From Tsuneonella rigui (GTDB lineage: Bacteria; Pseudomonadota; Alphaproteobacteria; Sphingomonadales; Sphingomonadaceae), in the NCBI RefSeq assembly GCF_003958625.1, contig NZ_RSEL01000005.1, forward strand, positions 310,001-374,000: 64,000 nt of DNA. The letters run 5' to 3'. Below are positions 55,633 to 57,476 of this stretch, in pieces. The notes under the pieces are model-generated. The model worked only from the letters and a program-made list of their open reading frames with translations. It searched no databases and had not been told where the DNA came from. A program made the position numbers and the translations under genes. Position 1 is the first letter of the stretch; every line of letters begins with the position of its first letter.

Positions 55633-55707
55633 TCCCCGATAGCTCAGCGGTAGAGTAGGTGACTGTTAATCACTTGGTCGTTGGTTCGAATCCAACTCGG
55701 GGAGCCA
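55633..55707 (+). tRNA. tRNA-Asn (anticodon GUU)
   Basis: The acceptor stem TCCCCGA pairs with TCGGGGA, the anticodon loop is CTGTTAA with anticodon GTT, and the T arm GTTGG/CCAAC closes TTCGAAT. The CCA end is encoded. Its 3' 45 bases, plus one T, are repeated exactly at 57062-57107, so this gene is the integration target of the element that follows and has remained intact. Confidence 0.97.
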
Positions 55708-55708
55708 T
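55663..55708 (+). repeat. attL core: tRNA-Asn 3' end (46 bp)
   Basis: Starts in the anticodon loop (CTGTTAA) and ends 1 nt after the encoded CCA. Identical to 57062-57107 over 46 bp, and both flanks diverge at once. Typical of tRNA-targeted tyrosine recombinases, where the crossover lies in the anticodon or T loop region. Confidence 0.92.
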
Positions 55709-55753
55709 AAAATCAAGCACTTAGCCCAGAAAAATGCCGAAATTTTCTCGGCT

Positions 55754-55774
55754 ACTGTGGCTTCACTGTGGCTT
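55754..55774 (+). repeat. Tandem ACTGTGGCTT sites, left end
   Basis: ACTGTGGCTT occurs at 55754-55763 and 55765-55774, and a variant ACTGTGGCCT at 55870-55879. Same orientation as the right-end copies. Candidate integrase arm-binding sites. Confidence 0.55.
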
Positions 55775-55788
55775 GTTGATGCCCTAAG

Positions 55789-55830
55789 ATCACTTAGTCG
55801 TCGCCTGCGAGCTTCAATTTTCTAAGTGAT
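55789..55830. repeat. 9-bp inverted repeat with a degenerate core copy
   Basis: ATCACTTAG (55789-55797) and CTAAGTGAT (55822-55830) are exact inverted repeats around a 24-nt loop. The left arm with its flank, GATCACTTAGTCGT, matches the tRNA segment AATCACTTGGTCGT at 12 of 14 bases. Region 55709-55953 otherwise holds no gene. Confidence 0.55.
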
Positions 55831-55953
55831 TTCAGCTATATAGCGCACACGACTGGACAGCTTGCCTCGACTGTGGCCTCTCAACATCAGGGAAGCTCGC
55901 AAGCGTTTGTTTTCTAGTCGTTTCATCGGTGGTCTTGGATCGGGGGCAGAGTA

Positions 55954-56337
55954 GTGATCGATGAATCAGCTACCCATGTGCGATCGACCATCCGCTACGA
56001 CGGACCTGCCTTGGACGGCCACGAAATGGACATCCAGGAGCTGGCCCCTGCCCTGCTTTCTTTGGCTGACCTGATTCAGATTGCGAATAAGAAGTTCAAC
56101 GGGTCGCACGCGTCCATCAAGGTCTTGGTCAACGCTGATGTCGATCAGCGATGTTTCATGCTGGACATTAGCTTGGTCCAGACCTTCTTCGATCAAGCCA
56201 AGACCTTCCTAGGCATCGAGGATGTCAAAACGGCGAAGGAGATTGCCGAATGGGTCGGCATCCTAAGCAGTGGCGGGATGGGCCTGTTCGCTACGCTAAG
56301 ATTTCTGTCAAAAAACAAAAGGGCGGCGGGCATCTAG
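55954..56337 (+). CDS. Element protein, N-terminal frame (unknown family)
   Basis: A frame of 127 residues from a GTG with GGGGGCAGAGTA upstream. It opens MIDESATHVRSTIRYDGPAL and contains HEMDIQELAPALLSLADLI, NKKFNGSHASIKVLVNADVD and DVKTAKEIAEWVGILSSGG. I recall uncharacterised accessory-region proteins with a similar DGPAL-x-x-H-x-MD-x-x-x-LAPALL start, but cannot name the family with certainty. No catalytic motif seen. The last six codons after the AAC are probably non-native: the reading continues in the -1 frame (see 56310-56316). Confidence 0.7.
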   Translation: MIDESATHVRSTIRYDGPALDGHEMDIQELAPALLSLADLIQIANKKFNGSHASIKVLVNADVDQRCFMLDISLVQTFFDQAKTFLGIEDVKTAKEIAEWVGILSSGGMGLFATLRFLSKNKRAAGI

Positions 56338-56897
56338 AGATTAAGGACGTCGGAGATGGCAATGTCATCATTAGCGGCAACGGCAACACGATAACCGTTC
56401 GCCGCGAGGTGGCAGCTTTGGCGCAAGAGCCACGGGCGGTCGAAAAGGCCAAGGCTGTCATGAAGCCGTTGGAGCGAAAAGGATACGAGAGCCTATCGTT
56501 CCTTGAGGATGATCGACCGGTTGTGGAGATTTCTCAGTCCGAGGCGAAAGCTATTGGCGATCTGCCCAACCAGCCTCTCAGTGACATCCCGGTAGAAAGC
56601 GTCTCGACCATCCGTGGCCAAGTGAGAATCAAATCGGCCCAATATGAAGGGAACGCGCAATGGGCGTTCCTGTGGAACGGCAGGGCTATCAGTGCGGAGA
56701 TGATCGATAGCGCCGTCGAATGGGTCGCTGCGTTCCAGCAGAACGACATCTATGCGCCGCCAAACAGCGTCCTTGACGTCACCATGGTGGAAACCGTGGA
56801 GCTTGATCCCGACGGGATGGTGATCGGCAGGCCAAGCTACAAGGTCGTGGAGGTGCACGGAGTAGCGCCCCCGCCAAAACAGATTCCGCTGTTCTGA
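56250..56897 (+). CDS. Element protein, C-terminal frame (unknown family)
   Basis: The frame has an ATG at 56250 inside the first frame, but its first 22 codons (MGRHPKQWRDGPVRY) look accidental. After the slip site it reads QKGGGHLEIKDVGDGNVIIS then GNGNTITVRREVAALA, PLERKGYESLSFLEDD and later VSTIRGQVRIKSAQYEGNAQ. The C-terminus is VHGVAPPPKQIPLF. Fused to the first frame it gives about 314 residues. No recognised domain. A beta-rich middle and a helix-rich start are suggested. Base composition and lysine/asparagine content differ from the neighbours. Confidence 0.65.
   Translation: MGRHPKQWRDGPVRYAKISVKKQKGGGHLEIKDVGDGNVIISGNGNTITVRREVAALAQEPRAVEKAKAVMKPLERKGYESLSFLEDDRPVVEISQSEAKAIGDLPNQPLSDIPVESVSTIRGQVRIKSAQYEGNAQWAFLWNGRAISAEMIDSAVEWVAAFQQNDIYAPPNSVLDVTMVETVELDPDGMVIGRPSYKVVEVHGVAPPPKQIPLF
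56310..56316 (+). other. A_AAA_AAC slippery heptamer, candidate -1 frameshift site
   Basis: Six A then C, placed so that the upstream frame reads TCA AAA AAC; this is the exact X_XXY_YYZ phase. A -1 slip makes the next codon CAA (56316-56318), which is the frame of the second part. The zero-frame stop is 19 nt further. No strong stem-loop or upstream Shine-Dalgarno-like stimulator was found by eye. Confidence 0.55.
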
Positions 56898-56930
56898 TCC
56901 AGTTGTGGGCACCGGTGACTGGGACGATTT

Positions 56931-56954
56931 CGCCGTGGCTTCCCACTGTGGCTT
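56931..56954 (+). repeat. ACTGTGGCTT sites, right end
   Basis: CGCCGTGGCTT precedes a perfect ACTGTGGCTT at 56945-56954; the GTGGCTT cores are 13 nt apart. Same orientation as the left-end sites. Together they frame the element cargo. Confidence 0.5.
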
Positions 56955-57061
56955 CTCCCTAGGGCGCGAACGGCCCCCAACGCCCCTCCATGCCGCTTTG
57001 ACACAGCCTAACTCTCTCAAATACCTGTTTTTTAATGTCTTTCTTCGATCACTTCTGCTTG

Positions 57062-57107
57062 CTGTTAATCACTTGGTCGTTGGTTCGAATCCAACTCGGG
57101 GAGCCAT
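57062..57107 (+). repeat. attR: duplicated tRNA-Asn 3' end
   Basis: Exact 46-bp copy of 55663-55708, lacking the acceptor 5' half, D arm and anticodon 5' side. Not a functional tRNA. It marks the pre-integration tRNA end, and the KTSC gene lies 21 nt beyond. Confidence 0.92.
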
Positions 57108-57128: not shown

Positions 57129-57365
57129 TTAGTCGGGATAGCGCCGTCGCGGTGGATCGCAGCGGCATTCGAAGCGGCCTTTGACTTGCGCATTGACGAA
57201 GCTGCCGGCTGACTCGGCGTCGCACAGCGCGTGGTAGAGCTCCGCCGGCACGTCCGAATAGACGTAACGGCGGCGTCCCGCGAACCAGATGCTCAGCTCG
57301 CGCGTGGCAGGGTTGTACGCCACTCGCTCGATCGCTGATGAAGCGCGCATTTCCTGAACCGGCAT
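57129..57365 (-). CDS. KTSC domain protein
   Basis: A protein of 78 residues from ATG 57365 (GTG 57371 adds two). The KTSC pattern is SSAIERVAYNPATRELSIWF, then YVYSDVPAELYHALCDAESAGSFVNAQVKGRF. Function of the domain is unknown; it is often a nucleic-acid-associated small domain. It is the first chromosomal gene after attR and converges on it. Confidence 0.85.
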   Translation of the reverse strand: MPVQEMRASSAIERVAYNPATRELSIWFAGRRRYVYSDVPAELYHALCDAESAGSFVNAQVKGRFECRCDPPRRRYPD

Positions 57366-57476
57366 GACCACTTAGCGCGCGAGCGAATCGCGGCGTTCCA
57401 CCGCTAGCGTCGAACCGAATCGGATTCGCGCCAGGACGAATCGGAACGCTGATCAGGAGCGGCGGTTGAGTCCGCC

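What the first reader, a model, noticed from the sequence alone, without database searches (positions are those of the whole stretch)
55663..57107. Minimal 1.4-kb element integrated in tRNA-Asn with no integrase
Two identical 46-bp copies of the tRNA-Asn 3' end bound a short, lower-GC insert. Known tRNA-targeted elements normally carry a tyrosine recombinase next to one att site; none is here. A one-gene cargo with att sites and arm-like repeats suggests a satellite that uses another element's integrase, or a remnant. If satellites of this size recur in related genomes, this would be a new class of very small integrative element.
Basis: partly seen in the sequence, partly recalled or inferred. 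Interest (0 to 1): 0.78.

Follow-up and report, generated by a model that had tools for sequence, protein, structure and literature searches.

The report
One-gene, integrase-less element in tRNA-Asn
A bacterial chromosome carries a tiny inserted DNA element (about 1.4 kb) in a tRNA gene that holds one phage- or defence-associated gene and no enzyme for moving itself, and a sister element of the same design sits in a different tRNA gene of another genus, which suggests very small mobile elements that depend on other elements' integrases.

Summary
An exact 46-bp repeat of the tRNA-Asn 3' end brackets a 1,353-bp, 54% GC insert, and all 10 other sampled genomes of the genus have one unoccupied tRNA-Asn site. 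The insert has no integrase. It holds one gene, frameshifted in an A-run, of the LAPAL family (NF053583; PADLOC candidate PDC-S42), packed between short direct repeats placed like integrase arm sites.

The new result is recurrence. Pontixanthobacter rizhaonensis carries the same design in tRNA-Thr(TGT): a 49-bp repeat, 1,243-bp spacing, one intact LAPAL gene, arm-like repeats at both ends, no integrase nearby, and the element absent from 6 congeners. The two LAPAL genes are sisters (support 100/99, 58.5% identity). Both repeats start 2 nt before the anticodon, but tRNA, arm motif and end sequences differ. The Pontixanthobacter arm motif also occurs at the ends of viral contigs, one of which encodes an integrase.

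Best reading: an integrase-less one-gene element moved by a helper's integrase in trans; in this window the gene is probably decaying. No helper was found for the window's arms, and no movement is shown, so repeated deletion of larger elements (CIME-like) remains a serious rival.

The parts
55633..55707 (+). tRNA-Asn(GTT), target gene, intact
   Evidence: ARAGORN; Rfam RF00005
55663..55708 (+). attL core: 46-bp direct repeat copy 1, from 2 nt before the anticodon to the 3' end
55754..55774 (+). two tandem arm-like sites ACTGTGGCTT (55754, 55765)
   Evidence: this paired arrangement found in only this element among 394 family genomes
55870..55879 (+). arm-like site ACTGTGGCCT
55954..56897 (+). 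single cargo gene, LAPAL family (NF053583; PDC-S42; phrog_3243), frameshifted
56310..56316 (+). A-AAA-AAC run where the reading frame breaks (ORF1 ends 56337, ORF2 continues in the -1 frame)
   Evidence: sequence
56932..56954 (+). arm-like sites GCCGTGGCTT (56932, imperfect) and ACTGTGGCTT (56945)
57062..57107 (+). attR core: direct repeat copy 2
57129..57371 (-). KTSC-domain gene, chromosomal right flank; this flank also lies next to tRNA-Asn in relatives without the insert
   Evidence: Pfam PF13619; empty sites

Best explanation
This is a minimal, integrase-less integrative element: an attP-like sequence (anticodon-loop core plus arm-type sites at both ends) wrapped round one gene. It integrated into tRNA-Asn by site-specific recombination (shown by the exact repeat and the unoccupied sites in relatives). 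Its integrase was supplied in trans by another element whose integrase binds ACTGTGGC-type arms (inferred). The cargo is a LAPAL-family gene, probably beneficial to its carriers as a phage-related moron or anti-phage gene (inferred from family membership and context). A sister element in Pontixanthobacter with an intact gene shows the design is maintained in a second lineage, while the window's copy has a frameshifted, probably decaying gene.
For: Exact att repeats and empty sites. No integrase in the insert. Same design in P. rizhaonensis tRNA-Thr, absent from 6 congeners. LAPAL genes of the two elements are sisters, 100/99. In both, the gene fills the space between the arms: 74 bp on the left and 34 bp on the right here, 56 bp and about 26 bp there, leaving no room for int remnants (sequence). 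Arm-like repeats at both ends of both elements. The P. rizhaonensis arm motif recurs at viral-contig ends: next to tRNA-Gly in L107 and L173, and about 560 bp from a phrog_1 integrase in L102.
Against: No helper integrase with the window's arms was found in 394 family genomes or IMG/VR, nor in the host. Only two such elements are known. Excision and transfer are not shown. The two elements share no end sequence, so the inheritance of the whole element is not demonstrated, only of the gene. The window's gene is frameshifted.
Confidence: 0.5

Rival explanations
1. Deletion remnant (CIME-like). A larger tRNA-Asn element carrying int and LAPAL lost everything but its ends and this gene; the Pontixanthobacter element arose by a separate deletion of another element. 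Neither is mobile now except by accident.
For: LAPAL genes occur in larger integrase-bearing or integrase-adjacent elements: 7.1 kb in tRNA-Ser (L037), about 23 kb in tRNA-Lys (G136), next to integrases in L035 and L039. CIMEs (att sites kept, integrase lost) are a described category (PMC5704250). The window's gene is frameshifted.
Against: Two independent deletions would have to leave the same architecture with the gene tightly fitted between the arms, and in sister genes. No larger element with matching ends was found among 397 family genomes; the other tRNA-Asn elements (G016, G327, G391) have other arms or ends and no LAPAL match.
Confidence: 0.38
2. The LAPAL gene is the mobile unit: it spreads as a lone gene by homologous or illegitimate recombination or an unknown activity, and sometimes lands inside an attP region, which only looks like a mini-element.
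For: Lone low-GC LAPAL genes without direct repeats lie between fliR and flhB in G037 and among chromosomal genes in L034 and L038.
Against: The window and Pontixanthobacter copies sit between exact att repeats with arm sites at both ends. The predicted fold shows no recombinase-like match; the only weak PDB similarity is OB-fold-like.
Confidence: 0.08

Closest known systems
CIME (cis-mobilizable element)
   Same: att sites retained, no integration or transfer genes, in the 3' end of a gene
   Different: CIMEs are described as decayed ICEs or IMEs (PMC5704250); here nothing recognisable from an ICE or IME remains, and a sister element of the same plan exists in another tRNA
Phage satellites (PICI, cfPICI, PICMI, P4-like)
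   Same: att-bounded chromosomal islands carrying defence-type cargo and dependent on helpers
   Different: Described satellites encode their own integrase and excision factors (stated in PMC10803314); this has neither, nor replication or regulatory genes, and is smaller
MITEs and CALINs (hitcher elements)
   Same: Depend on the recombinase of another element acting in trans (PMC11389934)
   Different: Those hitch on transposases or integron integrases; this has att sites of the kind used by tRNA-targeting tyrosine integrases
Int-bearing tRNA-Asn elements of the same family (G327 9.7 kb, G016 17.5 kb, G391 71 kb)
   Same: Same target gene; G327 and the window share the long anticodon-to-3'-end core
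   Different: They carry an integrase gene near one end; their ends lack the ACTGTGGC arms

Membership tests
Site-specific integrative element | Direct repeats from the 3' end of a tRNA gene at both borders, unoccupied site in relatives | tested here: met
Phage satellite (PICI/PICMI/P4-like) | Own integrase | tested here: not met
Phage satellite (PICI/PICMI/P4-like) | Regulator (AlpA-type), primase or replication genes | tested here: not met
   One gene only
Phage satellite (PICI/PICMI/P4-like) | Packaging or transfer by a helper phage | not testable with these tools
   No experiment possible
CIME | attL and attR retained, integration and transfer genes absent | tested here: met
CIME | Derived by decay from an ICE or IME | tested here: inconclusive
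   No ICE/IME remnant in the insert and no parental element found, but derivation cannot be excluded
LAPAL_fam NF053583 (cargo gene) | Match over the curated cut-off across the profile | tested here: met
   87 and 96 bits against cut-off 60 for the two frames, covering 2-110 and 100-290 of 292
Anti-phage system PDC-S42 (cargo gene) | Match to the PADLOC model | tested here: met
   PDLC05015, 3.4e-28 and 2.3e-16
Anti-phage system PDC-S42 (cargo gene) | Demonstrated anti-phage activity | not testable with these tools
   The library lists it as a candidate; no paper on it was found

The most novel reading that the evidence does not exclude
A class of one-gene, integrase-less elements that carry only attP ends and one anti-phage or phage-derived gene, use the integrases of unrelated phages or islands in trans, and change tRNA target by changing ends: the tyrosine-integrase counterpart of MITEs and CALINs.
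Probability: 0.35. Interest if true: 0.8.

Novelty: new variant of a known kind. Interest (0 to 1): 0.58.

Why it matters
If such elements are real and mobile, tRNA sites hold a layer of tiny hitchhikers that integrase-based island finders cannot see, and single defence or moron genes could move as self-contained att cassettes. It would also explain some lone genes beside tRNAs. The arm motif gives a direct handle for finding the helper.

Tried and rejected
G354, which showed two tRNA-Asn 3' ends 1,235 bp apart, is a duplication of the whole tRNA gene with a threonine-dehydratase-like gene between, not an element. Helper search: other tRNA-Asn elements, host recombinases, arm-pair pattern in 394 family genomes and IMG/VR: nothing with the window's arms. 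tRNA-Thr end duplicates in 149 family genomes: none (G187 itself was not in that sample). Resident P. rizhaonensis integrases lack the TTCCAACAT arms nearby. LAPAL in phage records: no match; plasmids: three distant matches in Burkholderiaceae. LAPAL fold: AlphaFold pLDDT 78, no confident PDB match, two or three uncharacterised phage proteins in BFVD; no function assigned. Programmed -1 frameshifting at A-AAA-AAC was considered; the close homologues compared read through this region in one frame, so a mutation, phase-variable tract or sequencing error is more likely. No paper describing this class was found, within an open-access library only.

Full report
Observation. tRNA-Asn(GTT) at 55633-55707 is followed by an insert closed by an exact second copy of its last 46 bp (55663-55708 and 57062-57107). 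The insert is 1,353 bp and about 54% GC in a 67% GC window. The genome is a 2.86-Mb alphaproteobacterium of the family that holds Pontixanthobacter. All ten other sampled genomes of its genus have exactly one tRNA-Asn 3' end and no copy of the insert; three of them (L003, L005, L011) align to both flanks across the site without it. The insertion is therefore real, site-specific and confined to this lineage in the sample.

Contents. Two ORFs (55954-56337, 56250-56897) are one gene broken by a frameshift: together they cover the LAPAL family model NF053583 (87 and 96 bits, cut-off 60; positions 2-110 and 100-290 of 292), PADLOC candidate PDC-S42 and phrog_3243. The break lies in an A run, A-AAA-AAC at 56310-56316. 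After the break about 190 codons stay open, and the downstream part is as similar to homologues as that of the intact sister gene, so the break is recent or an artefact. No integrase, regulator or replication gene is present. The genome's six tyrosine-recombinase matches lie elsewhere; those examined belong to a 10-kb element in tRNA-Lys, one beside tRNA-Thr(CGT), and a small recombinase gene with no tRNA near, none with this core or these arms.

Arm-like sites. ACTGTGGC occurs three times in the left non-coding end and once in the right end, plus an imperfect copy (55754, 55765, 55870, 56932, 56945), all in one orientation; 0 of 1000 dinucleotide shuffles of the two ends reach this. Position and arrangement are those expected of integrase arm-type sites (inference). 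The paired arrangement is found only in this element among 394 family genomes.

Recurrence. A search for the cargo gene found the same design in Pontixanthobacter rizhaonensis RZ02 (L033/L019/G187): tRNA-Thr(TGT), exact 49-bp repeat, spacing 1,243 bp, one intact LAPAL gene of about 315 codons, no other gene. None of that genome's recombinase matches is within 300 kb on that contig. Six congeners have the tRNA-Thr without the insert, with similar flanking DNA. Its ends carry five TTCCAACAT-type sites in both orientations (8 of 1000 shuffles). In both elements the repeat begins two bases before the anticodon, and the gene nearly fills the space between the arms (with the Pontixanthobacter stop codon read). 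The LAPAL proteins of the two elements are sisters with support 100/99 at 58.5% identity in a 15-row tree. The ends of the two elements share no sequence, so tRNA target and arm specificity changed together.

Context of the gene family. Other LAPAL genes lie in a 7.1-kb integrase-bearing element in tRNA-Ser (L037), in an about 23-kb tRNA-Lys element (G136, with an in-frame stop in the gene), beside integrases (L035, L039), in phage contigs (L040-L043), and as lone low-GC genes without repeats, for instance between fliR and flhB in G037. The gene is thus repeatedly mobile cargo. Its function is unknown: the family name says phage structural protein, PADLOC lists it as a defence candidate, and the AlphaFold model (pLDDT 78) finds no confident PDB match and a few uncharacterised phage proteins.

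Helper. The 397-genome family search for tRNA-Asn end duplicates gave three integrase-bearing elements (G016 17.5 kb, G327 9.7 kb, G391 71 kb), none with ACTGTGGC arms, and one false case (G354). No IMG/VR contig with the arm pair is a plausible helper. For the Pontixanthobacter element the arm motif ATGTTGGAATTCCAACAT followed a few bases on by ATGTTGGAA (one mismatch in L173) was found at viral-contig ends: next to a complete tRNA-Gly(CCC) in L107 and L173, and about 560 bp from a phrog_1 integrase in L102. So that motif does belong to integrase-bearing phages, though with another or unknown core.

Interpretation. Shown: two site-specific insertions of one-gene integrase-less elements, sister cargo, arm-like sites at both ends. 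Inferred: integration by an integrase supplied in trans, and mobility. The strongest rival is two parallel deletions (CIME-like). The tight packing and sister genes favour a streamlined element; the lack of a helper, the frameshift and the sample of two hold the confidence at about one half. A published statement that all known satellites need self-encoded integrases (PMC10803314) and the list of integrase- or transposase-dependent hitchers (PMC11389934) mark the gap this would fill.

Noticed in passing
L047 9234-10217 (G037): A lone, low-GC LAPAL gene lies between fliR and flhB of a flagellar gene cluster, without direct repeats.
   Followed up: partly
L053 (G327:C3:384701-394427): A 9.7-kb tRNA-Asn element with integrase and a capsid-like protein looks like a capsid-forming satellite; its ends carry AGGTAAC-type repeats.
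   Followed up: partly
L097 8416-10289 (G187:C4 end): A 526-aa integrase follows tRNA-Lys(TTT); the stretch after the tRNA is repeated inverted at the contig end, with TCTACACA repeats. Assembly artefact or unusual inverted end.
   Followed up: no
L054 2125-3468 (G354): Tandem duplication of the whole tRNA-Asn gene with a threonine-dehydratase-like gene between the copies.
   Followed up: yes
L107 8549-8698 and L173 2328-2467: Viral contigs place the palindromic motif ATGTTGGAATTCCAACAT about 45-60 bp upstream of a tRNA-Gly(CCC) gene.
   Followed up: partly
L050 1108-11143 (G000:C5, outside the window): The host carries a 10-kb integrase-bearing element in tRNA-Lys with a 47-bp repeat.
   Followed up: no
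L036 9282-10937 and L021 (G136): The same three-gene cassette (96-aa ORF, LprI-like ORF, LAPAL) occurs in Croceicoccus and beside tRNA-Lys in G136.
   Followed up: no
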